From IMG/VR virus record IMGVR_UViG_3300017751_000187, positions 1 to 26,238 of that record: a DNA stretch of 26,238 nt; one strand, written 5' to 3'. Below are positions 1-16,427 of this stretch, piece after piece (positions within the stretch are counted from its first letter, which is position 1; the number at the start of each line of letters is the position of its first letter). The DNA is from a virus. The notes under the pieces are model-generated. The model saw only the letters and a program-made list of their open reading frames with translations, was not told where the DNA came from and ran no database searches. Made by a program: the position numbers and the translations under genes.

Positions 1-201
1 CATTGTGCCATATCCTTTACGGCGAGTTAATTTAGCAATACGTTTAGCGTCTTCACTAGACATTATTTGTATTGAGTTACCTGTTTTGTGATTAATTACT
101 GGTGCACAACCATACGCTTCGACTGAAGAGCAGGAGACACATACTTTGAAGCCGAGACGTAGTCGACCTTCTGGGATTTGTTTATTACATTTACATTTCA
201 T
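1..201 (-). CDS. Cys-rich zinc-ribbon-like small protein, partial
   Basis: Translated by hand; it starts at the ATG at 201-199 and runs off the left edge, so the C-terminus is missing. The start reads MKCKCNKQIPEGRLRLGF, followed by KVCVSCS. The C-x-C (residues 3 and 5) and C-x2-C (about 21 and 24) pairs could bind one zinc ion, as in DksA/TraR-like or ribbon proteins. The later part is basic (TRRKGYGTM). A bipartite promoter-like motif (208-229) sits six bases before the ATG. No function is claimed; a small DNA-, RNA- or RNA-polymerase-binding protein is one possibility. The gene call is supported by the sensible reading frame and the upstream motif. Confidence 0.6.
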   Translation of the reverse strand, partial: MKCKCNKQIPEGRLRLGFKVCVSCSSVEAYGCAPVINHKTGNSIQIMSSEDAKRIAKLTRRKGYGTM

Positions 202-207
202 ATATAT

Positions 208-229
208 ATTATCCTACTTTATTCGTATT
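208..229 (-). promoter_or_regulatory. Bipartite promoter-like motif, copy 1
   Basis: On the minus strand this reads AATACGA, nine bases, GATAAT, then six bases to the ATG of the Cys-rich gene at 201. It is one of six copies with identical spacing in the first 2.2 kb. GATAAT resembles a bacterial -10 box. If so, transcription would start at or next to the start codon, giving a leaderless or near-leaderless mRNA. That it is a promoter is inference from its position and orientation. Confidence 0.55.
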
Positions 230-358
230 TGTTTTGTGTTTTGCCTTTCTTGTATACTTCTTTTTATTCTTATGTATCTTAGACTTATAAGGCAAATGTC
301 CTAGTTCCTGATCTACTTCACGCCTGATCTTACTCTTCTGTTTGTTATTTAGTTTCAT
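209..358 (-). CDS. Very basic 49-residue hypothetical protein
   Basis: This short gene was read by hand. The start codon at 358-356 overlaps the stop of the upstream gene by one base (TAATG), which suggests translational coupling. The protein begins MKLNNKQKSKIRREVDQELG and ends in a lysine/arginine/threonine-rich tail (…YTRKAKHKTNTNKVG). It is strongly cationic with no hydrophobic segment, so nucleic-acid binding is plausible but unproven. Its stop codon lies inside the promoter-like motif of the following gene. I do not recognise the family. The overlap and the lack of a competing frame are the main support. Confidence 0.5.
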   Translation of the reverse strand: MKLNNKQKSKIRREVDQELGHLPYKSKIHKNKKKYTRKAKHKTNTNKVG

Positions 359-624
359 TAGTCTAACCCATCTCTGTGACCACCTAAGTGACCTGTGAAG
401 TGTGTTTTATCTGCTTTCACCATTGCACCGATACAAGCCGCTAACCTTTCCGCTTCAGGGCATGGCTCTTTTATCTCTTCAAATTGCTTTTCTAATTCTA
501 GATCGTTGAGTAAATCGTTGATTTTATCAGCGTGAATATAACCTAAATGATATTCTTTACCATATTTCTCTGTATATATCGAGTAAACCGTGTTACCTGA
601 GTATGTTTGTAGTTTTATTTTCAT
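358..624 (-). CDS. Hypothetical protein, 88 residues
   Basis: A small soluble protein of unknown function. The first half is rich in Tyr and charged residues (MKIKLQTYSGNTVYSIYTEK). The middle is an acidic helix-like stretch around LNDLELEKQFEEIKEP. The C-terminus carries CPEAERLAACIGAMVKAD and a His/Gly-rich end (HFTGHLGGHRDGLD). No catalytic motif or membrane segment is visible. It lies one base downstream of the secreted-protein gene's stop and overlaps the next small gene by one base, so the three form a tight leftward operon. The function is not recognised. Confidence 0.6.
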   Translation of the reverse strand: MKIKLQTYSGNTVYSIYTEKYGKEYHLGYIHADKINDLLNDLELEKQFEEIKEPCPEAERLAACIGAMVKADKTHFTGHLGGHRDGLD

Positions 625-625
625 A

Positions 626-907
626 TTAGTTTTCTTTTATTTCATTAAATCTTTTAGCGTATAAATCTGACATTATATCTCTATTCTTTGACTTGATCGC
701 TAACACTTGGTTGATATAGTACATACCTTTTTCGTCTGTTAGAAAACCATAGTACATATCCATTCTTATAGCGTCTATAATATCGTCTATTTGATACTCG
801 ATCGACTTGAATGTCTCCACTTCTTTCTCGTATTTATCGTTTACACATTGAGCATAGCTCATTCCCGCAATTAATAGTGCTGCTACACTCATAGTTATTT
901 TCTTCAT
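626..907 (-). CDS. Small secreted protein with Sec signal peptide
   Basis: The first 20 residues form a textbook Sec signal: MKKITMSV, a hydrophobic core AALLIAG, then MSYA before QC. Signal peptidase I cleavage after Ala19 is likely. The residue set before Cys is not a convincing lipobox, so a lipoprotein is less likely. The mature part (about 73 residues) is helical, charged and Tyr/Met-rich (around DDIIDAIRMDMYYGF), with no recognised domain. A phage product sent to the periplasm among small early genes could act in host takeover or superinfection exclusion, but that is inference. It is the third gene of a leftward cluster whose likely promoter is the motif at 1056-1077. Confidence 0.65.
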   Translation of the reverse strand: MKKITMSVAALLIAGMSYAQCVNDKYEKEVETFKSIEYQIDDIIDAIRMDMYYGFLTDEKGMYYINQVLAIKSKNRDIMSDLYAKRFNEIKEN

Positions 908-917
908 ATTATTTATT

Positions 918-1049
918 TTAAGCGTATGATACTTTAGCGAATATCCACTCGTAGCAAGTCTTTCTATCCTCGTGAGAGAAAACGATCTTGTTAGTGTGAT
1001 TTGTAGTCACTGTCCATATTTTGTATTTATTGTTATATATTATTCTCAT
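918..1049 (-). CDS. Hypothetical protein, 43 residues
   Basis: This short gene was read by hand from the ATG at 1049-1047 to the TAA at 920-918. The product starts MRIIYNNKYKIWTV and continues with KIVFSHEDRKTCYEWIFAKV; a beta-strand-rich start followed by a helix is plausible. It fills what would otherwise be a gap between two leftward genes. It also begins exactly six bases after the GATAAT of a promoter-like motif, the same spacing seen for the gene at 201. That placement is the best evidence that it is real. The family is not recognised. Confidence 0.5.
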   Translation of the reverse strand: MRIIYNNKYKIWTVTTNHTNKIVFSHEDRKTCYEWIFAKVSYA

Positions 1050-1055
1050 ATTATT

Positions 1056-1077
1056 ATTATCTTACTATATTCGTATT
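1056..1077 (-). promoter_or_regulatory. Bipartite promoter-like motif, copy 2
   Basis: Minus strand: AATACGA, nine bases, GATAAT, then AATAAT and the ATG of the 43-residue gene. Spacing within the motif and to the ATG matches copy 1 exactly, although the nine spacer bases and surrounding sequence differ. It would drive the cluster running from 1049 down to 209. Confidence 0.55.
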
Positions 1078-1086
1078 GATATTGTA

Positions 1087-1356
1087 TTATTTTACTATTA
1101 ATTCATATTCACCTGAGTTAAACTCTTTAAGCTCACTTACTCTTAAGAAAGGATTTTCTTCGTGACTACTAAAAGAACAGTAGCCATCTGGTCCACTTCT
1201 TAATACTTTGACTTCACCATAACCTTCCCACCAAGGATTGTTATTATAGTCTACTATTATTTGTTTTACTTCTGGTGTTTTAGAGTGATCGAAGTTAAAC
1301 CAAGCAGTCTTTAGTGCTTCTCTGTGTGCTCTCACTTTATCTATATTTTTTGACAT
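1087..1356 (-). CDS. Hypothetical protein, 89 residues
   Basis: A soluble orphan. The N-terminal third is a charged helix (MSKNIDKVRAHREALKTAWF). The middle has a Trp/Asn-rich motif (NNNPWWEGYGEVKVL), followed by SGPDGYCSFSSHEENPFLRV. It ends in a short strand, GEYELIVK. There is no signal peptide, membrane segment or recognised catalytic motif. It lies downstream of the tRNA-like element, with only 27 bases between them, and has no copy of the promoter motif of its own. It is probably co-transcribed from the motif at 1828-1849 through the gene at 1522-1773. Confidence 0.55.
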   Translation of the reverse strand: MSKNIDKVRAHREALKTAWFNFDHSKTPEVKQIIVDYNNNPWWEGYGEVKVLRSGPDGYCSFSSHEENPFLRVSELKEFNSGEYELIVK

Positions 1357-1383
1357 AGTTATATATTTTATTATTAAACATTA

Positions 1384-1437
1384 GTTGTAGTATGAGAATC
1401 GAACTCACATACCTCGGCGGTATTACCATTACTACAG
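1384..1437 (-). other. Truncated tRNA-like element (T-arm plus acceptor)
   Basis: Minus strand. A clear T-arm is visible: stem GTGAG/CTCAT with a seven-base TTCGATT loop (1408-1392). It is followed by a 3' acceptor strand ACTACAA and a C. An upstream CTGTAGT (1437-1431) pairs with six of those seven bases. Only 22 bases lie between acceptor and T-arm, about half the normal number, so normal D and anticodon arms cannot both fit; ATACC/GGTAT could form one short stem. TTGGAGT at 1447-1441 is an alternative 5' acceptor, also with one mismatch. CCA is not encoded. It could be a decayed tRNA, an attachment-site remnant or a tRNA mimic. The rest of the gene-free stretch 1357-1521 holds one more short inverted repeat (AGTGG/CCACT near 1471-1495) and nothing else I can name. 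Confidence 0.4.
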
Positions 1438-1521
1438 TGTACTCCAAATACTTGGTCATTCATATTTTATAGTGGGAAACGTACTCAACTACCACTTTTG
1501 GCTCAAGAAAATTACTTACTA

Positions 1522-1773
1522 TTATTCAGTAATTGTTTGAAGATTTCTACAGAATGCTGGTACTGCATTTGAGTTAGTATAACTTTTATACTTTTGAAAA
1601 CAATTCATTGACTCGAATTTTTCTTTATGAGTATTATATACTTCATCATGATTATAAGAAACAACTTCTTGTTTTTTATTAGTGAAAGTAATTACAGTAT
1701 TTTTACCGATTAATGACTTTCTGATTACAAATCTTTTAGTTTTAAGTTCTTCAACTTTGTTTAACTTTGACAT
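1522..1773 (-). CDS. Hypothetical protein, 83 residues
   Basis: A basic, soluble orphan and the first gene leftward from the divergent control region. It starts with a charged helix (MSKLNKVEELKTKRFVIRKS), has a strand-rich centre (KNTVITFTNKKQEVVSY) and ends with two Cys residues (NCFQKYK and PAFCRNLQ). No recognised domain. A 54-base, very AT-rich leader separates the ATG from the GATAAT of the motif at 1828-1849, so this gene, unlike those at 201 and 1049, should have an ordinary 5' leader. The likely early timing is inferred from small size and position only. Confidence 0.5.
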   Translation of the reverse strand: MSKLNKVEELKTKRFVIRKSLIGKNTVITFTNKKQEVVSYNHDEVYNTHKEKFESMNCFQKYKSYTNSNAVPAFCRNLQTITE

Positions 1774-1827
1774 AATTTATTTATTTAGTTATTATTAATT
1801 TATTTTATTTAGTTTGTTTGTATTTAT

Positions 1828-1849
1828 ATTATCTATTGCTAGTCGTATT
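1828..1849 (-). promoter_or_regulatory. Bipartite promoter-like motif, copy 3
   Basis: Minus strand AATACGA, nine bases, GATAAT. It faces the gene starting at 1773, with a 54-base AT-rich leader between motif and ATG. Upstream context (GTC before AATACGA) resembles copy 2. Confidence 0.55.
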
Positions 1850-1956
1850 GACATTGTAAAAGTATATACTTTGTTTAGTTGTATTATTGTACACTACTGC
1901 TACTGCCCGCCGTTTCACTGTGCACAAATTATATTTGTTTTACTGTTTACATTTAT

Positions 1957-1978
1957 ATTATCATTTGTTGGTCGTATT
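1957..1978 (-). promoter_or_regulatory. Bipartite promoter-like motif, copy 4
   Basis: Minus strand AATACGA, nine bases, GATAAT, preceded by AGTA and followed by ATAAATGTAAACAG. No open frame follows within 100 bases, so it either adds a second start for the leftward transcript or has another role. The downstream GTAAACAG is shared with copy 5. Confidence 0.5.
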
Positions 1979-2043
1979 TACTGTGCAATTATTATTATTT
2001 CATTTCAATTTCGTTGTTGTTGATCGTTTCTGTTTACGTTATT

Positions 2044-2065
2044 ATTATCATTGTCGCATCGTATT
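2044..2065 (-). promoter_or_regulatory. Bipartite promoter-like motif, copy 5
   Basis: Minus strand AATACGA, nine bases, GATAAT, followed by AATAACGTAAACAG. It is the outermost leftward copy and lies 46 bases from the rightward copy, forming a divergent pair. Confidence 0.5.
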
Positions 2066-2111
2066 TAGTTTGCATTAATATAATTATATAATTATTGATC
2101 GATACAAAGTA

Positions 2112-2133
2112 AACACGAGAAAAAGATGATAAT
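2112..2133 (+). promoter_or_regulatory. Rightward promoter-like motif, copy 6
   Basis: Plus strand AACACGA (one base off AATACGA), nine bases, GATAAT, preceded by AGTA and followed by AT as in copy 4. It faces the rightward genes, leaving a leader of about 200 bases before the ATG at 2345. Because it points the opposite way from the other five yet still points toward genes, it supports the reading of this motif as a promoter. Confidence 0.5.
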
Positions 2134-2146
2134 ATCAATAGAAAGT

Positions 2147-2207
2147 CGGCGGGGGCGGCCAAAAAAAGCTGTTTTTGGTGGGGGTGGGTGGCCTTATGGA
2201 GGAGGGG
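2147..2207 (+). other. G-rich element with A/T hairpin
   Basis: Runs of G in an AT-rich genome: CGGCGGGGGCGGCC at 2147-2160, GGTGGGGGTGGGTGG at 2177-2191 and GGAGGAGGGG at 2198-2207. The second has four G tracts joined by single T bases and could form a two-layer G-quadruplex. Between the first two lies a hairpin with stem CCAAAAA/TTTTTGG (2159-2165 with 2172-2178) and a six-base loop. It would be near the 5' end of a transcript from the motif at 2112. The function is unknown; an RNA structure, replication site or packaging signal are all possible. Confidence 0.45.
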
Positions 2208-2241
2208 CTATGCAGTGCTTCTATATTTATAATAACTTTTT

Positions 2242-2288
2242 TGTGACATAAGCCTATTAACAAGGTATAGTAACAGGCAAGTGTCACA
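2242..2288. repeat. Interrupted inverted repeat
   Basis: TGTGACA (2242-2248) pairs with TGTCACA (2282-2288), and an inner GCCT (2252-2255) pairs with AGGC (2275-2278), leaving a 19-base loop. In RNA this gives a two-part hairpin in the leader of the rightward genes; in DNA it could be a dimer-binding operator. No U-run follows, so it is not a simple terminator. Confidence 0.5.
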
Positions 2289-2344: not shown

Positions 2345-2692
2345 ATGTCATTTAAAATGAAGGGTCCGTCCCTATATAGAAATACTAAGGTAACTAGTTC
2401 TGGATACAGAAGTAATAGTCCTGACGTTAACAATAAACAAAACATAATACCTGGTAACACCATATCTATGAAAGAGGAGAATGGTAAACCTCTTAAAAAA
2501 GGTTCTATAAAAGGAAAGGGAATGACAACAGGTAAAACTAAGGTAATGAAGCCTGGTAAAGATTATAAGTTTCCTGGAGATAAAGCGGTATTAGAAACTC
2601 CATTAAAAAAGAAAGACTGTAATTGTTGGGCGGGTCACAGTAGAGTTCCTGGCACGAAGCCTTGTGCTAAAGGTAGTTGTAAGAAAGACTAA
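2345..2692 (+). CDS. KMKG-tagged basic protein with Cys-rich tail
   Basis: First gene of the rightward block. It starts MSFKMKG, the tag shared with several genes downstream. The body is Lys/Gly-rich with many short KxGK patterns, contains SNSPDV (about residue 23-28) and a TPLKK motif (85-89) that resembles the S-P-x-K-Q motif of its relatives. The last 25 residues hold four cysteines (C92, C94, C107, C112) in DCNCWAG and KPCAKGSC, possibly a small zinc site. There is no hydrophobic segment and the protein looks largely disordered. The stop overlaps the next start by one base. The function is unknown; packing with virion DNA is an inference from charge and family. Confidence 0.6.
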   Translation: MSFKMKGPSLYRNTKVTSSGYRSNSPDVNNKQNIIPGNTISMKEENGKPLKKGSIKGKGMTTGKTKVMKPGKDYKFPGDKAVLETPLKKKDCNCWAGHSRVPGTKPCAKGSCKKD

Positions 2693-3108
2693 TGGCTTTT
2701 AAAATGAAGGGTTTTGTCGCTCACAATATGTATGACAAAAAGAAAGCGGAAACACATAAGGAGCATTTAGAGCTTAAGAAGAAGGGTTACACTCATTCTC
2801 CCGTTAAAAAGAAGTCTTGTTCTCCTATGAAGGCAGATGTAAAAAAAACAATAGGACCAGGTAAAAACTTTAATAAAGCAAAATCAACAGGTACTGGTGC
2901 TGAGGCTGGAGGAGGTATGACACAGAAAGGTGTTAACTCTTATAAAGCTAAAAACCCAGGTAATAATTTAAAAACAGCTGTAACTACAGATCCTTCTAAA
3001 TTAAAAAAGGGTAGTAAAGCATCTGGAAGAAGAAAATCATTTTGTGCTAGATCAGCAAGTTGGGACGGTCCTAGAGGAAAAGCTGCTAGACGTAGATGGA
3101 ATTGTTAA
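2692..3108 (+). CDS. KMKG-tagged basic protein with SFCARS…RRRWNC tail
   Basis: It starts MAFKMKGF and carries two S-P-x-K motifs, SPVKK (36-40) and SPMKA (44-48), in a lysine-rich, mostly disordered body with a Gly-rich middle (GTGAEAGGGM). The C-terminus is distinct: GRRKSFCARSASWDGPRG followed by RRRWNC at the very end. Similar SFCAR…RRW-C endings occur, from memory, in other marine phage proteins of unknown role. Two conserved Cys flank basic residues, so metal or nucleic-acid binding is possible. Its start codon overlaps the previous stop, indicating coupled translation. Confidence is good for the gene and low for the role. Confidence 0.6.
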   Translation: MAFKMKGFVAHNMYDKKKAETHKEHLELKKKGYTHSPVKKKSCSPMKADVKKTIGPGKNFNKAKSTGTGAEAGGGMTQKGVNSYKAKNPGNNLKTAVTTDPSKLKKGSKASGRRKSFCARSASWDGPRGKAARRRWNC

Positions 3109-3131: not shown

Positions 3132-4460
3132 ATGGCATACAAACAAAACAGATCAATAATAGCAGGTACATCAGGGCATCGTTCAGCTTTAAAACAAAAA
3201 ATGATGATACGTGAGGGGAAGCCTTTACAGCCTTTACCACAGCAACCGGAAAAACCTATTAAGATAGGGAAAATAGATGCTAAATCTATGAAAAAGAAAG
3301 TGGGTAAACTAAACTCAAAGTCTGCTTTAAAGCAAAAAGGTGAAATAGTATACAAAGACGGCAAGAAGTTCTATAAAGCTTCTGATGGTACGCTACATAC
3401 TGGGCAGGTAAGTGACTACGAAACTGAAAAAGCTAACGATATAAAAGCTAAAAAAGCTAAAGCTAAAAAGAAAAAAGACGTTCCTTACAAAGGAGAGAGA
3501 AAACAACCTACTTACGAGGGAACTGATGAGTATAGAAAAGAAAAAGACATACCTAAAAAAGAATTTAAAGAAAGAGGTATTAAAAAAGGTAAAAAATCAC
3601 CTTTAAAACAAGCAAAAACTAAAGAAGATTACATGGCTTTAGGTTTTAGCCAAAAAGATGCTGATAAAATGATGGCTGATGGCGCTGTTTCTGGTGTTTT
3701 AGCAGGTGGAGCGATGAAAAAGAAGAAAAATATCAAAAAACAAACTCTTAATGTTAAAAAAGGCTCAGCAGCTGATAAAAAGTCTAAATTAACAGCTAGT
3801 AGATCTCCTATGAAGCAAATGGATAAGGATTTAGTTAAATCTGTTAACTCTGCTAGCAAATCTAGCGCCGACGCTTCTATTAAAATGAGCAAAAACTCTG
3901 GTGACGCTTTAACTTCTTTAGCTGGTAATGTTAGTAAAGGGTTAAAAATGGCCTCTGGTATGAAGTATAAGAAGTCACCTGCTAAGCAAACAGCTAAGCA
4001 AAAAGCAAAGTTACCTAAAACAATAGTAAATGCTATAGCTAAAAAGCAAGGTAAGTCTCCTATGAAGCAGTTAAAAGATCTTAGAAAAAAAGACAAGTAC
4101 GTAGACCTTGACAAAGGAGCTGACATGCCGGTTAAGAAAGGTGGTTTTGGACCTAGAAAAGGAAACGTTCCTAATCCTGAGTTAAAAGGAATGAATAAAA
4201 AGGTAAGGAAAAGAAAAGTAATGAATGATGGGCCTAAAACAGGCTATACTATAACTGATAAAAAAGGTACTAGAAAAGGTACAGATAATTGGACTAATCC
4301 CAAAGCTGTTAAATCTGATTTCCAAAAGAAAGTAGATGCAAAGAAAGCGGCATACGCTAAAATGACACCTGCTCAAAAGAAAGCCTCACAAGATGCTGCT
4401 AACGATAAAGCAGATAGATTTCACAAGAGAGGTAAGTACGCTGTTAAAAAATCTAAATAA
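3132..4460 (+). CDS. Large Lys-rich protein with six S-x-x-K-Q repeats
   Basis: 442 residues, extremely basic. It starts MAYKQ rather than the full KMKG tag. Six five-residue motifs are spread along it: SALKQ (18-22, 64-68), SPLKQ (156-160), SPMKQ (225-229, 309-313) and SPAKQ (282-286). Between them lie lysine runs (KAKAKKKK near 108-115). A Ser/Ala helical stretch without long hydrophobics (about 230-275) follows GFSQKDADKMMADG, which resembles a short UBA-like helix turn. It looks like a multivalent scaffold or DNA-coating protein; the S-P-x-K pattern recalls DNA-binding S-P-K-K turns of histone H1, but that is analogy only. A 22-base A/T-rich gap precedes it, and the next gene begins one base after its stop. 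Confidence 0.6.
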   Translation: MAYKQNRSIIAGTSGHRSALKQKMMIREGKPLQPLPQQPEKPIKIGKIDAKSMKKKVGKLNSKSALKQKGEIVYKDGKKFYKASDGTLHTGQVSDYETEKANDIKAKKAKAKKKKDVPYKGERKQPTYEGTDEYRKEKDIPKKEFKERGIKKGKKSPLKQAKTKEDYMALGFSQKDADKMMADGAVSGVLAGGAMKKKKNIKKQTLNVKKGSAADKKSKLTASRSPMKQMDKDLVKSVNSASKSSADASIKMSKNSGDALTSLAGNVSKGLKMASGMKYKKSPAKQTAKQKAKLPKTIVNAIAKKQGKSPMKQLKDLRKKDKYVDLDKGADMPVKKGGFGPRKGNVPNPELKGMNKKVRKRKVMNDGPKTGYTITDKKGTRKGTDNWTNPKAVKSDFQKKVDAKKAAYAKMTPAQKKASQDAANDKADRFHKRGKYAVKKSK

Positions 4461-4461
4461 C

Positions 4462-5142
4462 ATGGCATATAAAATGAAAGGTTTTGAGTATCCTGGAAAG
4501 TCTCCAGTGAAAAGTGCTGGTGCAGATGCCTTAGCTATGAGCAAGGCTAGACTTAACAATCAAGAGCATGGAAGACAAGTCAACGCACAAGCAAAGGCAG
4601 ACAACCAGCCAAACCTAAAAAAATCACCTTTTTTACAAAAACAAAAGAAACGTAGAAAAGATATTAAGGTTGATAACTCTGATGGTACTACTAGAGTAAA
4701 ACCTGTTAAAACAGTCAAGGGTTCTGATGGTAGAGTTCAAGTACAACAAATCAAGTATGCTGATGGTTCGAGTCATTTTAATAGGTATGAAGACGGTAAA
4801 ATGGTTGATCAGAACTTTATGCCAAAGAAGATGCGTAAAAAGAGAATCAAAAAGATTAGAACAAAGAGAAACACACCAAAACTGATCAAACCCCTACCAA
4901 TGCCAGATTTTCCTGAACAAGAGGTAGTATTGGATGCTGAAGATCAAGCGGAATACGATAGAAGAGAAGAGCTAGCTAATAAAAAGAAAGCAGCCGCTGA
5001 AAGAAAGAAAAACCGTCCAGTTACTAAAAAAGTAACCGACGCTGTTAAAAATGTAGTTAGTAAGATACCAAAAATAAAAAGACGTCCAAGGGGTAGAACT
5101 GTTAAAAACCTAGTTACTGGTAAAAATAATAAACTAAGATAA
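4462..5142 (+). CDS. KMKG/SPVK-tagged basic protein
   Basis: I place the start at the ATG at 4462, one base after the preceding stop. An upstream in-frame ATG at 4393 would add 23 residues that overlap the previous gene and hide the conserved MAYKMKGFEYPGKSPVK start. The start is nearly identical to those of the proteins at 11732 and 12033. A second SPFLQKQ follows at about residue 55. The middle (DGTTRVKPVKTVKGSDGR, then YADGSSHFNRYEDGKMVD) looks like beta-hairpin repeats, as in MORN- or WG-like segments. The C-terminal half is helical and very basic. 226 residues. The stop overlaps the next start by one base. Confidence 0.6.
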   Translation: MAYKMKGFEYPGKSPVKSAGADALAMSKARLNNQEHGRQVNAQAKADNQPNLKKSPFLQKQKKRRKDIKVDNSDGTTRVKPVKTVKGSDGRVQVQQIKYADGSSHFNRYEDGKMVDQNFMPKKMRKKRIKKIRTKRNTPKLIKPLPMPDFPEQEVVLDAEDQAEYDRREELANKKKAAAERKKNRPVTKKVTDAVKNVVSKIPKIKRRPRGRTVKNLVTGKNNKLR

Positions 5143-6002: not shown

Positions 6003-6581
6003 ATGGCATACACACCGTTTAAAATGAAAGGACATACTCTTCCAGGTATAAACCAAAAGGGTAACAAAACAGTAAAAGGAGCTTCACCAGCTAAAGCGCT
6101 AGCAAACAACCAGGAATCAAAAGACCATGCTAAAAGAATGGACTATAAGAAAAGACAGCTTAGCGAGCAAAAAGTTAGCACTGAAACAGCTCAATCAAAA
6201 GCCGTGGAAAGAGCAGCTAAAAAAGGAAAAGTTAGTCCAATGAAGCAAGGCTTAAGAGATCCAAAAAAAGATTACACTGATCCAGCAGTTAGAAAAGCGG
6301 AAATCGAAGGTAACAAGAGAATGATTGAAAATAGAAAAAGAGCTAATCCTAAATCTTTCAAGAAAAATCCAATGGATGTAAGACCTTCAGATAAAAATAA
6401 AGGTAAAAGAAGTAAAGGTGGACTAAAGAAGCTAACACCTGAGATGAAAGCTAAAATGGCTTCTAATACAAAAAAGCCAAGTCCAGTAAAAGGATTTTTA
6501 GGAGACTTAGCTAAAGGAAAAGGAGCATTAGGAGCTATAAACCCACTTGGAGCTATAGGAAGTAAAATGGGTATGTTCTAA
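6003..6581 (+). CDS. KMKG/SPMKQ basic protein with Gly/Ala tail
   Basis: 192 residues. The tag is shifted inward: MAYTPFKMKGHTLPG. Motifs SPAKA (28-32), SPMKQ (78-82) and SPVKG (160-164) follow. The centre is a highly charged helix (AKRMDYKKRQLSEQKVST, then KAEIEGNKRMIENRKRA). The last 28 residues are small and hydrophobic (FLGDLAKGKGALGAINPLGA), similar in feel to the IPG unit of the previous gene. A 45-base AT-rich gap precedes the start. After the stop, a small hairpin TAGGG/CCCTA (6590-6604) with no U-run lies before the next gene. The function is unknown. Confidence 0.58.
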   Translation: MAYTPFKMKGHTLPGINQKGNKTVKGASPAKALANNQESKDHAKRMDYKKRQLSEQKVSTETAQSKAVERAAKKGKVSPMKQGLRDPKKDYTDPAVRKAEIEGNKRMIENRKRANPKSFKKNPMDVRPSDKNKGKRSKGGLKKLTPEMKAKMASNTKKPSPVKGFLGDLAKGKGALGAINPLGAIGSKMGMF

Positions 6582-6951: not shown

Positions 6952-8520
6952 ATGGAGTACAATTTACCGTCTCAAATTGTCAAAGATTTAAACTTTGGCA
7001 GTGAGGCTAAAACTAAAATAGTAGCTGGTGTTGAAAAACTAGCTAAAGCAGTGAAATCAACCTTAGGCGCTTCGGGTAAGTGTGTAGTTTACGAAGACGA
7101 CAGAGGTAAACCGGTCATCACAAAAGACGGAGTAACAGTAGCAGAATCTGTTGTCTTATTTGATCCGGTTGAAAATATGGGAGCAACCCTTATTAAAGAA
7201 GCTGCTAGGAACACAGTGAGAGAAGCAGGTGATGGTACTACTACAGCTACTGTCCTTGCTGAATCACTACTTAAACATGTTAACAATCATACTAATTTTA
7301 ATATTAGAGAAATAAAAGACGGTATAAAAACTGGTCTTGTAAAAATAAACGACTATCTAAATAAGAATTCTGTCAAGATCGAGGGCGATATGCTGAAATC
7401 CGTAAGCTCAATCTCATGTAACAACGATGATGAGTTAGGTAAGATTATAGCGGAAGCTTATGATAAAGTTGGTAAAGATGGTGTTGTTTTGATGGAAGAA
7501 GCTGAAGCTGATATTACTTATGTCGATGTGGTTGATGGTGTTCAGTTAGATCAATGCGGTTTAACATCACAGCATTTTATAACTAACACCGAGAAGTTAA
7601 AATGTGAACTAGAAGACCCTTTAATTCTAATAGTTTATTCTGAAATAAAAACAGTAAGAAAAATACAAAGCATATTAGAGTATGTTATAAAAAATAAAAG
7701 ATCATTATTGATAGTTGCTTCCGTAGATCAACAAGTTAAGGCCGCGTTAATGATGAACAAGGTAAAAGGCAATATAAGCGTTAATATAATAGACCTACCT
7801 GGTTTTGGACCAACTAAAAAAGACACAACAGACGATTTAGCTATACTAACAGGTTGTACGGTTATAAACGAAGAGTTAGGAGATGATTTAGACCTTATAG
7901 ATCCTAGTGTATTAGGTGTTGCTAGTTTTTGCTCTACAGATGACAAAAGCACTGTTATAACACTTTTAGAAAACGAACAGACTGAGCTTGAAGAAAGAAT
8001 ACTAGATGTAAAGAAAAAGATAAAGTCTGAAAAAAATGGTTTCTTAAAAAAGAAGTTAGAACAAAGATTAGCTATGCTATCAGGATCAGTGGGTATAGTT
8101 AGAGTTGGTGCTAGTTCTAAGGTAGAGATGAAAGAAAAGAAAGATAGAGTTGAAGACGCTATTTACGCTACAAAAGCTGCTTTGAAAGAAGGTATAGTTT
8201 CTGGTGGTGGTGTTGCTTTGCTTAATGCATCACAAAATCTAACACCAGATAATATTGGAGAAGAACTATTATTCAAAGCTATAAAATCTCCATTTAATAC
8301 TATATTAGAAAATGCTGGTTTAGAGCAGGTAGCGCCGAGACCACAAAAAGGTTTAGGTGTAGATGTTGTAACTGGTGAATCAGTTGACATGATTAAGTCT
8401 GGTATCATTGATCCAGTACTTGTGACTAAGTCAGCACTTAAAAATGCAGTAAGTGTAGTATCAACAATTATATCTGCTGATTGTGTAATTTCAAATATGA
8501 GAGATGAAAGCAATAAATAA
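6952..8520 (+). CDS. groEL: Phage GroEL-type chaperonin
   Basis: 522 residues, versus about 548 in E. coli GroEL. Equatorial nucleotide-binding landmarks are present: TLGASGK (about 37-43), ITKDGVTVA (56-64) and DGTTTAT (94-100). The catalytic Asp sits in [16 protein letters not shown] (near 398-413), followed by [13 protein letters not shown] and [12 protein letters not shown] are further family signatures. The apical domain (about 185-375) is more divergent but keeps LPGFG (281-285). The C-terminus ends DESNK and lacks the Gly-Gly-Met tail that lines the usual cavity. The Lys of LGPKG is replaced by Ser. It probably folds a phage virion protein. groES overlaps its end, the reverse of the usual groES-groEL order. 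Confidence 0.95.
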
Positions 8521-8761
8521 TTACATAGTAGTAGATAATATAAAAATAGAACCTAAAAAGATTGGTGGTCTAATAATGACAGAAGACACTGATGTTGACA
8601 ATAGGTTTATAAAAGCAAAAGTATTATCCGTTGGTAATAAAGTTGAAGGACTTAAAAGCGGTGATATTATATTTTACGACAAACACGCTGGACACGGTAT
8701 AACGTGGAAAGATGATTTTTATTATGTTATAAGAAGTCATGACGTTGTTTTAGTAGAATAA
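8504..8761 (+). CDS. groES: Phage GroES-type co-chaperonin
   Basis: 85 residues, slightly shorter than bacterial GroES (about 97). The N-terminal strand ([13 protein letters not shown]) leads into a mobile loop with GGLIM (21-25), equivalent to the GroEL-binding Gly-Gly-Ile-Val-Leu of E. coli GroES. It then has IKAKVLSVGNKVEG, LKSGDIIFYDKH and a last strand ending SHDVVLVE, all in canonical order. The loop between (DIIFYDKHAGHGITWKDD) is His-rich. The start overlaps the end of groEL by 17 bases in another frame, so the two are made together and probably pair as lid and barrel. Confidence 0.88.
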   Translation: MKAINNYIVVDNIKIEPKKIGGLIMTEDTDVDNRFIKAKVLSVGNKVEGLKSGDIIFYDKHAGHGITWKDDFYYVIRSHDVVLVE

Positions 8762-11731: not shown

Positions 11732-12031
11732 ATGGGATATAAAATGAAAGGCTGTATGTACTCTAAAAAATCACCTTTAAAACAAAAGAAAAAAACAGTT
11801 GTAGGTGAAAACACTGATGAGTTAAAAAGAGATAAAAAAGGTAATAGCTATGCATTAAACATGTATGACCAAGCTGATGGTATAAATAAAGGTGACACTA
11901 TATTTGCTCCTGATTACAAGATACCAACTAGCTATGGTTATATAGAGGGTGGAGATTATGACGCTACGGAAACTAAAAGTAGTAAAAAAAGAAAGAAAGG
12001 ACCTAGATCTTACAATATAAAAACAAAATAA
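11732..12031 (+). CDS. KMKG/SPLKQ-tagged small protein
   Basis: 99 residues. It starts MGYKMKGCMYSKKSPLKQKKK, with the same residue spacing between KMKG and SPxK as the proteins at 4462 and 12033. The body is polar: DELKRDKKGNSYALNMYDQA, then DTIFAPDYKIPTSYGYIEGG, and a basic tail (KSSKKRKKGPRSYN). No hydrophobic segment. It lies between the metallopeptidase-like gene and a further tagged gene just ahead of the holin. The tag is conserved while the bodies differ, so it probably works as a separable targeting or binding unit. Function unknown. Confidence 0.58.
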   Translation: MGYKMKGCMYSKKSPLKQKKKTVVGENTDELKRDKKGNSYALNMYDQADGINKGDTIFAPDYKIPTSYGYIEGGDYDATETKSSKKRKKGPRSYNIKTK

Positions 12032-12032
12032 T

Positions 12033-12329
12033 ATGACGTTTAAAATGAAAGGGTTTTTATACCCAGGGAAATCCCCGTTAAAACAACAAGGACCTATACC
12101 TGAAAAAAATCCAGATTTAATGAAAGGTGAAATGGAAGGAACGTGGGTTTACAAGGGTAAAGATAAAAACGAAAGAATTATTGATTTAGAAGATAGAGCT
12201 GAGTTTGCTTCAAGCGATGCTGAAGGTGCTGAGGGCAAAGAAAAGAAGAAACACTTGGCTAATGCTAAAAAACTTCAACACGAGGCTGATATTATTAGAA
12301 ACAGAAAGCCAGATAAAAAACAAAAGTAA
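12033..12329 (+). CDS. KMKG/SPLKQ-tagged small protein
   Basis: 98 residues. The start MTFKMKGFLYPGKSPLKQQG matches the 4462 protein almost residue for residue for 17 positions. The rest is charged: KGEMEGTWVYKGKDKNE, a helix DLEDRAEFASSDAEGAEGKE and a Lys-rich end. It is more acidic in the middle than its relatives. It begins one base after the preceding stop, and its own stop overlaps the holin start by one base, so all three are probably translated together. Function unknown. Confidence 0.58.
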   Translation: MTFKMKGFLYPGKSPLKQQGPIPEKNPDLMKGEMEGTWVYKGKDKNERIIDLEDRAEFASSDAEGAEGKEKKKHLANAKKLQHEADIIRNRKPDKKQK

Positions 12330-15633: not shown

Positions 15634-15837
15634 ATGGCATATAAACAAGCAGGGTGGTCTCCATTTACAAAGCTAGATGATAAGGCTAGAAAGAAAGAAA
15701 TAAAAACTTTCATAAAAAACAACATGGATAAAATGTCTGACGCTGAAATGATGAAAGCTGTTAGATCAAAATCTGATAATAAGACTGAGTACAATTGGAA
15801 CGTTAAAACCAAAGAAGTAGAAGCTCATGATTTATAA
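15634..15837 (+). CDS. MAYKQ-starting small protein
   Basis: 67 residues. The start MAYKQAGWSPFTKLDDKARK recalls the MAYKQ of the large Lys-rich protein at 3132, and SPFTK is a looser version of the S-P-x-K motif. The rest is a charged helix (EIKTFIKNNMDKMSDAEMMK) and a short strand. It is the only tagged relative outside the main blocks and lies in the packaging region. Function unknown. The stop overlaps the next start by one base. Confidence 0.55.
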   Translation: MAYKQAGWSPFTKLDDKARKKEIKTFIKNNMDKMSDAEMMKAVRSKSDNKTEYNWNVKTKEVEAHDL

Positions 15838-16427
15838 TGAAAAGCGTTTATAACTTTGTTGTTGAGCCTATTGGTGGTAGATATAATAATACTAAAAATG
15901 TTGGTGATTCTGAATTGATATTAAACACAGAAATGTACAATCACAAGTATGTTAATAGAGAAGCCAAAGTATTATCATCGCCTATAATAACTAATAGTAA
16001 TATAAAAGTTGGTGATAAGGTTATATTACATCACAATGTTTTTAGAAGGTGGGAAAATCAGTATGGTGAAGAGAAAAACAGCAGAAGCTATTTTGAAGAA
16101 AATAAATATTTTGTAAATGAAGATCAAATATTTTTGTACAAAAGAAATAAAGATTGGATAGCACCAAAAGAATATTGTTTTATAAAACCAATCAAAAGCA
16201 TAGACAACTACGATAATAACAGTGAAAGACCTTGTATAGGTATAGTTAAGTATTCTGTAGAAAAAAGTTTAATTGGTTGTTTAGTTGGTTTTCACCCTGG
16301 TTCTGAATACGAGTTTGTTGTGGACGGACAAAGACTATATAGAGTTTTATCAAATTTAATTACAATAAAATATGAATATCAAGGAAACGAAGAAGAATAT
16401 AATCCTAGCTGGGCAGAAAGCAGTTGA
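15837..16427 (+). CDS. GroES-like protein with two cpn10-type halves
   Basis: 196 residues. Both halves look like co-chaperonin folds. The first: YNFVVEPIGGRYNNTKNVGD, a loop, then EAKVLSSPIITNSNIKVGDK with VILHHNVFRRW and VNEDQIFLYKRN. The second: EYCFIKPIKSIDN, RPCIGIVKYS, then LVGFHPGSEYEF and LYRVLSNLITIKYE. K-V-G-D-K-V near the base and a final D-Q-I strand are typical GroES landmarks. The bona fide groES is about 7 kb upstream, so the phage carries two. It may cap a chaperonin for one client, or serve another assembly role. The end overlaps the next gene by 56 bases. Confidence 0.65.
   Translation: MKSVYNFVVEPIGGRYNNTKNVGDSELILNTEMYNHKYVNREAKVLSSPIITNSNIKVGDKVILHHNVFRRWENQYGEEKNSRSYFEENKYFVNEDQIFLYKRNKDWIAPKEYCFIKPIKSIDNYDNNSERPCIGIVKYSVEKSLIGCLVGFHPGSEYEFVVDGQRLYRVLSNLITIKYEYQGNEEEYNPSWAESS

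What the first reader, a model, noticed from the sequence alone, without database searches (positions are those of the whole stretch)
208..2133. Six copies of a bipartite motif, AATACGA-N9-GATAAT, facing outward from the control region
Five minus-strand copies (208-229, 1056-1077, 1828-1849, 1957-1978, 2044-2065) have perfect AATACGA and GATAAT boxes and an invariant 9-base gap, while spacers differ. One plus-strand copy (2112-2133, AACACGA) faces the rightward genes. Each copy points toward the genes on its own side. GATAAT resembles a -10 box, but AATACGA sits too close for a normal -35 and does not match the Bacteroidetes TTG / TAnnTTTG promoter. This may be a phage-specific promoter read by a phage RNA polymerase or a sigma/activator-modified host enzyme.
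Basis: partly seen in the sequence, partly recalled or inferred. Interest (0 to 1): 0.75.

Follow-up and report, generated by a model that had tools for sequence, protein, structure and literature searches.

The report
Phage promoter tied to phage sigma factor
The repeated DNA signal is almost certainly the start switch for a block of genes in a large, uncultured family of marine flavobacterial phages, and it is most likely read by the bacterium's own RNA polymerase after the phage fits it with a sigma factor of its own.

Summary
In detail: six exact copies, about 0.003 expected by chance. The motif is larger than reported. From 202 distinct copies, the element is ACAAAcTAAATACGA–N9–GATAAT–N6–purine, covering −36 to +1. 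The 9-base gap is essentially invariant. A pyrimidine–purine step falls 7 bases after GATAAT. In 41 copies an ATG with an open frame starts on that base, so those mRNAs would be leaderless; two are in the window. Nearly all copies (198/202) are intergenic. It is almost certainly a promoter.

The window is a 26-kb fragment of an uncultured phage related to Elemovirus and Callevirus. Every motif-selected contig of 60 kb or more (24/24) encodes a sigma-70-family protein. Sigma-bearing contigs with enough upstream sequence have the motif, typically 5-13 copies, mostly in the 6-8 kb before the sigma gene. Sigma-less relatives (MW202828, elemoF, phi38:1) lack it. Host genomes almost never have it, and known flavobacterial promoters differ.

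Most likely host core polymerase plus the phage sigma reads it. That step is inferred: all carriers form one clade, and how transcription starts at time zero is unexplained. No phage RNA polymerase gene was found.

The parts
201..237 (-). Promoter copy 1 (-36 to +1; AATACGA 229-223, GATAAT 213-208); predicted start at 201 = A of the ATG of ORF 1-201 (leaderless)
1049..1085 (-). Promoter copy 2; predicted start at 1049 = A of the ATG of ORF 918-1049 (leaderless)
1821..1857 (-). Promoter copy 3, proximal of three tandem leftward copies; predicted start 1821, about 48 nt before the ATG of ORF 1522-1773
1950..1986 (-). Promoter copy 4 (tandem, leftward); predicted start 1950
2037..2073 (-). Promoter copy 5 (tandem, leftward, outermost); predicted start 2037
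2104..2140 (+). Divergent copy 6 (AACACGA variant) facing the structural genes; predicted start 2140; lower matrix score (26.4 against 31.7-46.3)
1..201 (-). Small cysteine-rich (zinc-ribbon-like) early gene, cut by the contig end; homologues in most sigma-bearing contigs
918..1049 (-). 43-aa early gene behind promoter copy 2
1522..1773 (-). First leftward gene (83 aa); homologues in most sigma-bearing contigs
2243..2287 (.). Inverted repeat GTGACATAAGCC...AGGCAAGTGTCAC in the late leader, probable operator; a second copy in relatives overlaps the start of the HTH-sigma operon

Best explanation
The motif is the core promoter of a phage-specific transcription class. An upstream element (ACAAAcTAAATACGA, -36 to -22) and a -10-like box (GATAAT, -12 to -7), separated by a fixed 9 bp, position the enzyme so that RNA starts at a purine 7 bases after GATAAT. 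About a fifth of the promoters start exactly on the A of an ATG. In relatives held almost whole, 5-13 copies per genome drive a 6-8 kb block of small leftward genes that leads up to an HTH-sigma gene pair; in a minority a weaker divergent copy faces the structural genes. The most likely reader is the host core RNA polymerase carrying the phage's own sigma-70-family factor, possibly helped by the co-encoded HTH protein, so the block would feed forward on itself. Shown: sequence, geometry, location, start-codon coincidence, association with the sigma gene.
For: Promoter: gap exactly 9 in 166 copies against at most 1 at any other gap; 202 distinct copies with C at -35 in 185, purine at +1 in 198 and pyrimidine at -1 in 174, none of these used for selection; ATG exactly at +1 in 41 copies, all 41 open for 30 codons or more, against 0.7% at random positions; 198/202 not inside a same-strand gene against 51% of random positions; found de novo. 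Reader: sigma-70-family protein in G032 and in 49 contigs, with motif copies concentrated upstream of it; the converse, contigs chosen by the motif alone, gives sigma in 24/24 of 60 kb or more and 37/47 of 45 kb or more, and the ten without are cut 12-5641 nt downstream of the nearest listed motif; relatives without sigma have no motif (MW202828, elemoF, phi38:1); extended motif found only 10 times in 257 Gb of bacterial genomes; two sigma genes have a copy at exactly -28, i.e. a leaderless promoter of their own; region 2.4 residues aligned with E. coli Q437 and T440 are invariant G107 and R110 while the promoter has G at -12; mapped flavobacterial promoters differ (PMC6847099, PMC9723704). 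The window's close relative G076 (terminase 87%) carries the sigma.
Against: No transcript data. All carriers belong to one clade (59/59 share the terminase), so the association is phylogenetically one event. Host-type -7 elements are missing from the control region and early intergenic DNA, so how the first sigma is made is unexplained. Replication and structural genes almost lack the motif. Motif variants do not track sigma residues. The sigma gene itself is not in the window.
Confidence: 0.62

Rival explanations
1. The motif is an immediate-early promoter read by host RNA polymerase with one of the host's own sigma factors, perhaps with a phage activator; the phage sigma, made from this block, serves other (late) promoters.
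For: Copies cluster in the small-gene block next to the control region, where early promoters usually lie, and are nearly absent from replication and structural genes. That block has almost no host-type -7 element, so something available at time zero must read it.
Against: Does not match mapped flavobacterial promoters (TAHHTTTG, TAnnTTGY, sigma54, CGT-type ECF). The motif is essentially absent from bacterial genomes. It is absent from sigma-less relatives that infect the same class of hosts. No second repeated motif was found at late genes for the sigma to read.
Confidence: 0.25
2. An unrecognised phage RNA polymerase, for example the giant virion protein, reads the motif, as in N4 or crAss-like phages.
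For: A 1,800-4,000-aa protein sits at the end of the structural cluster. A time-zero reader would solve the start problem.
Against: No T7-type polymerase, with T7 itself as positive control; no multisubunit polymerase; no PHROG, Pfam, NCBIfam or PDB match for the giant protein to a polymerase. Sigma-less relatives also have a giant protein but lack the motif. No hairpin enrichment at the sites, unlike N4 early promoters.
Confidence: 0.08
3. The motif is not a promoter but a binding site for another process (operator, replication origin or RNA processing site).
For: Three copies are tandem in a non-coding stretch (1828-2065).
Against: Strictly directional, intergenic, no palindrome, with a pyrimidine-purine start and leaderless ATGs at the right distance. 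A separate inverted-repeat element exists in these phages.
Confidence: 0.04
4. The motif is a T7-type promoter: AATACGA-N9-G has the same geometry as TAATACGA-CTCACTATA-GGGAGA.
For: Seven bases and the spacing coincide (sequence shown directly; T7 promoter from own knowledge).
Against: No T7-type polymerase gene in eleven records including the window. Conservation extends to -36 and to +4 with no TATA at the T7 -4 to -1 positions. Leaderless ATGs fit a start 7 bases after GATAAT, not at its G.
Confidence: 0.01

Closest known systems
phiEco32 / 7-11 phage sigma factor and its promoters (PMC4331800)
   Same: A podovirus encodes a sigma-related factor that redirects host core polymerase to a short phage-specific motif; its promoters lie upstream of the sigma gene.
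   Different: There the phage promoters drive middle and late genes and host promoters start the early part. Here the motif sits in the block before the sigma gene, no host-type promoter is evident, and the element (-36 to -22 plus -10) is unrelated in sequence to tAATGTAtA. No sequence match of the sigma to any cultured phage.
Bacteroidota housekeeping sigmaA promoters (TTTG / TAHHTTTG; PMC6847099, PMC9723704)
   Same: Box about 12 to 5 bases before the start; host core polymerase.
   Different: GATAAT instead of TAHHTTTG; strong -36 to -22 element; about 20% leaderless at the predicted start against 5.5% in F. psychrophilum.
phiKZ-type virion polymerase promoters (AR9: AAATATATATTAT-6N-G; PMC5312081)
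   Same: AT-rich conserved box 6 bases before a conserved purine start; strong consensus; early genes.
   Different: Read by a virion multisubunit polymerase, which was not found here.
T4 middle promoters (MotA box plus -10; own knowledge)
   Same: A non-canonical element around -30 stands in for the -35 and works with a -10 box.
   Different: T4 uses host sigma70 with AsiA and MotA; here the -10 is not the host's and a phage sigma exists. Whether the co-encoded HTH protein acts like MotA is untested.

Membership tests
Sigma-70 family (the phage protein in relatives) | Region 2 (-10 recognition, core binding) | tested here: met
   Pfam Sigma70_r2 at 24.3 bits, cut-off 24
Sigma-70 family (the phage protein in relatives) | Region 4 helix-turn-helix (-35 recognition) | tested here: met
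   Sigma70_r4 at 28.2 bits, cut-off 24.1
Sigma-70 family (the phage protein in relatives) | Whole-protein family model and fold | tested here: met
   TIGR02937 at 64 bits, cut-off 42.9; phrog_351 E 6e-23; Foldseek best hits are sigmaA, probability 1.00, low TM as domains are placed differently
Phage-encoded sigma regulon (phiEco32 type) | Sigma gene in the same phage as the motif | tested here: met
   In relatives, 24/24 contigs of 60 kb or more; the window itself is cut before that locus
Phage-encoded sigma regulon (phiEco32 type) | Repeated phage-specific motif before phage genes, including upstream of the sigma gene | tested here: met
Phage-encoded sigma regulon (phiEco32 type) | Host-type promoters start the cascade | tested here: not met
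   Host -7 element depleted in early intergenic DNA
Phage-encoded sigma regulon (phiEco32 type) | Sigma-dependent transcription from the motif | not testable with these tools
   Needs biochemistry or infection RNA-seq
Bacteroidota sigmaA promoter | TAnnTTTG at -7 with TTG near -33 | tested here: not met
   Logo of 202 copies against the published consensus
T7-type promoter | Cognate single-subunit polymerase gene and TATA at -4 to -1 | tested here: not met
N4 virion-polymerase early promoter | Small hairpin at the promoter | tested here: not met
   Hairpins in 27% of sites against 32% in shuffles
N4 / crAss-type virion RNA polymerase (giant protein) | Polymerase domain or catalytic signature | tested here: inconclusive
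   No family or PDB match and no convincing DxDGD signature, but the fold model was poor

The most novel reading that the evidence does not exclude
The phage sigma is carried in the virion and injected with the DNA. It would program the host polymerase from time zero, so that these phages bypass the unusual Bacteroidota housekeeping sigma completely in their early block, which would explain why host-type -7 elements are missing there.
Probability: 0.12. Interest if true: 0.85.

Novelty: new variant of a known kind. Interest (0 to 1): 0.62.

Why it matters
Bacteroidota use an unusual housekeeping sigma and promoter. How their phages take over transcription is known mainly for crAss-like phages with a virion polymerase (own knowledge). 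A large family of uncultured flavobacterial phages with its own sigma and a precisely defined promoter would be a second strategy, and a testable one. It also predicts exact start sites, corrects start codons for many tiny early genes, gives a DNA signature for finding these phages in metagenomes, and offers a candidate orthogonal expression system for flavobacteria.

Tried and rejected
Residue-by-residue covariation of the phage sigma with motif variants in 25 loci gave nothing beyond multiple-testing noise, and near-identical region 2.4 sequences (L144, L145) go with different bases at -13. Host promoters TTG-N17..21-TAnnTTTG are not enriched overall in any genome and are absent just upstream of the sigma gene in most loci. 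De novo search for a second repeated promoter at late genes found nothing clear. The late leader as a conserved structured RNA: RNAalifold found only a 3-bp stem, although the window's own leader folds somewhat better than shuffles (z -2.2). Profile comparison of the HTH partner with the sigma gave no relation, although in one genome a weak region-4 hit falls on it. The AF2 model of the giant protein's conserved end was too poor to use. No phage in the INPHARED collection carries the sigma. Papers naming this motif, or a sigma in crAss-like phages, were not found.

Full report
CHECK. The six copies are exactly where stated. The expected number is 0.0025 per window. The window is a 26,238-base IMG/VR fragment of a phage whose terminase, portal and capsid proteins match PHROG head genes. 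Its terminase is 64% identical to MW202828 (Manatee Spring), 45% to Elemovirus and 37% to Cellulophaga phi38:1 (Callevirus). The named relatives with a host infect Flavobacteriia.

WHAT THE ELEMENT IS. In relatives the motif recurs in the same setting. Aligning 202 distinct copies gives tACAAAcTAAATACGA-N9-GATAAT-AtAAAY-R-TAA. Only AATACGA (loosely) and GATAAT were used to pick the copies, so C at -35 (185/202), A at -36 (192/202), A at -6 (196/202), pyrimidine at -1 (174/202) and purine at +1 (198/202) are independent evidence. The gap of 9 is essentially absolute (166 copies against at most 1 at any other gap). Matrix scores are cleanly split: real copies score 22-49, the best score in reversed genomes is 12. 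A de novo dyad search recovers it without prior input.

WHY A PROMOTER. Copies avoid genes (198/202 are not inside a same-strand ORF of 60 aa or more, against about half of random nearby positions) and 41 of them have an ATG exactly at the predicted +1; all 41 ATGs open a frame of 30 codons or more (random: 0.7%). In the window this applies to ORFs 1-201 and 918-1049. GATAAT then occupies -12 to -7, AATACGA -28 to -22 and ACAAAc -36 to -31.

WHO READS IT. G032, a 68.7-kb record with the motif among the first terminase relatives, encodes a 255-aa sigma-70-family protein. It matches regions 2 and 4, the NCBIfam sigma-70 superfamily model, a PHROG sigma family, and sigmaA structures by fold. A scan found 49 viral contigs with it. 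In these, motif copies fill the stretch from about 9 to 2.5 kb upstream of the sigma gene on its strand, roughly every kilobase, and are rare elsewhere. Of the 49, 41 have a copy within one mismatch; the other eight begin within 3.9 kb upstream of the sigma gene. In nine genomes held almost whole there are 5-13 copies each, almost all in this block, plus a late-facing copy in some. The reverse test, choosing contigs by the motif alone, gave the sigma in 24 of 24 contigs of 60 kb or more and 37 of 47 of about 45 kb or more. The ten without it end 12-5641 nt downstream of a motif copy. The relatives lacking the sigma lack the motif and also the HTH gene that overlaps or abuts the sigma gene in most loci. 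Bacterial genomes contain the extended motif only in ten stretches of 257 billion bases, and one of those contigs has four copies and is probably a phage. Mapped flavobacterial promoters are TAHHTTTG, TAnnTTGY, sigma54 or ECF types (PMC6847099, PMC9723704).

A SPECIFIC READING HYPOTHESIS. The HMMER alignment to sigmaA/sigma70 structures pairs the phage's KRIRGAIRRAID with WWIRQAITRAIA. In E. coli, Q437 and T440 contact the T at -12 (own knowledge). Here those positions are invariant G107 and R110 in 24 diverse phage sigmas, and -12 is G. An arginine reading a guanine is chemically natural. This is an inference that one substitution would test.

WHAT DOES NOT FIT. First, all carriers are one clade (59 of 59 contigs tested carry the same terminase, mostly 71-87% identical to the window's), so the two-way association counts as one evolutionary event. 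Second, host-type -7 elements are missing from the control region on the early strand (0.19 per region against 0.48 in shuffles) and almost absent from early intergenic DNA. Third, replication and structural genes have almost no copies; a divergent copy faces the structural genes in 8 of 21 control regions, in six of them at a fixed 123-125 nt from a conserved block. These points keep the rival 'host enzyme reads it first' alive at about a quarter.

EXCLUDED OR WEAK. A T7-type polymerase is absent with a working positive control, despite the curious T7-like geometry. Multisubunit polymerase is absent. Hairpins are not enriched. The giant virion-cluster protein shows no polymerase similarity, but this is not conclusive.

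A SECOND ELEMENT. A 43-46 bp inverted repeat (GTGACAnTAGCC...GGCTAnTGTCAC) occurs one to four times per genome, typically in the late leader (window 2243-2287) and over the start codon of the HTH gene. It is absent from the sigma-less relatives tested. It is probably an operator that couples the HTH-sigma operon to late genes; its binder is unknown.

VERDICT. Promoter: about 0.95. Read by host core plus phage sigma: about 0.62. As a kind, phage sigma with its own promoter is known (phiEco32, PMC4331800). New here are the element itself, its concentration in the block before the sigma gene, the frequent leaderless starts, and its presence in a family of uncultured phages of flavobacteria.

Noticed in passing
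window 2243-2287; second copy at the HTH gene start in relatives (e.g. L116 near 9356): Long inverted repeat GTGACAnTAGCC...GGCTAnTGTCAC, one to four per genome: in the leader of the late genes and overlapping the start codon of the HTH-sigma operon; absent from sigma-less relatives.
   Followed up: partly
window 2134-2242 and the same place in relatives: G-rich segment (often GGGGCCC) followed by a conserved ATATYTAA...TTTTTTT block between the divergent promoter and the late genes.
   Followed up: partly
relatives: directly upstream of the sigma gene (e.g. L094:3712-4329 minus strand): Conserved ~205-aa protein with a C-terminal helix-turn-helix, overlapping or abutting the sigma gene in most of 47 loci; no family match beyond a weak HTH hit.
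   Followed up: partly
L087 (MW202828) 43745-51768 and 55154: About 15 copies of a perfect palindrome GTGTCGTTAACGACAC, mostly between its rightward early genes; this relative has neither the sigma nor the motif.
   Followed up: no
L090 (phi38:1) minus strand, about 11.9-29.7 kb: Ten copies of ACACTATCAA, mostly right after a stop codon; MW202828 has a similar AACACTATC just before some ATGs.
   Followed up: no
window 2345-2692, 2692-3108, 3132-4460, 4393-5142, 6003-6581, 11732-12031, 12033-12329: Several genes of the late cluster share an N-terminal [FY]KMKG peptide and/or repeated SPxKQ motifs, as if they carried a common targeting or processing signal.
   Followed up: no
window 1376-1462 minus strand: tRNA-like stretch: TGTAGTA...TACTACA ends and a GTTCGATTC-type arm but no D arm; ARAGORN finds no tRNA and the fold is no better than shuffles.
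   Followed up: partly
window 6952-8520, 8504-8761 and 15837-16427: Phage GroEL with a small gene in GroES position right behind it, plus a second GroES-like gene near the terminase.
   Followed up: no
G131 (129,537 bases): IMG/VR contig that looks like two related phage genomes joined: two sigma genes and two terminases.
   Followed up: no
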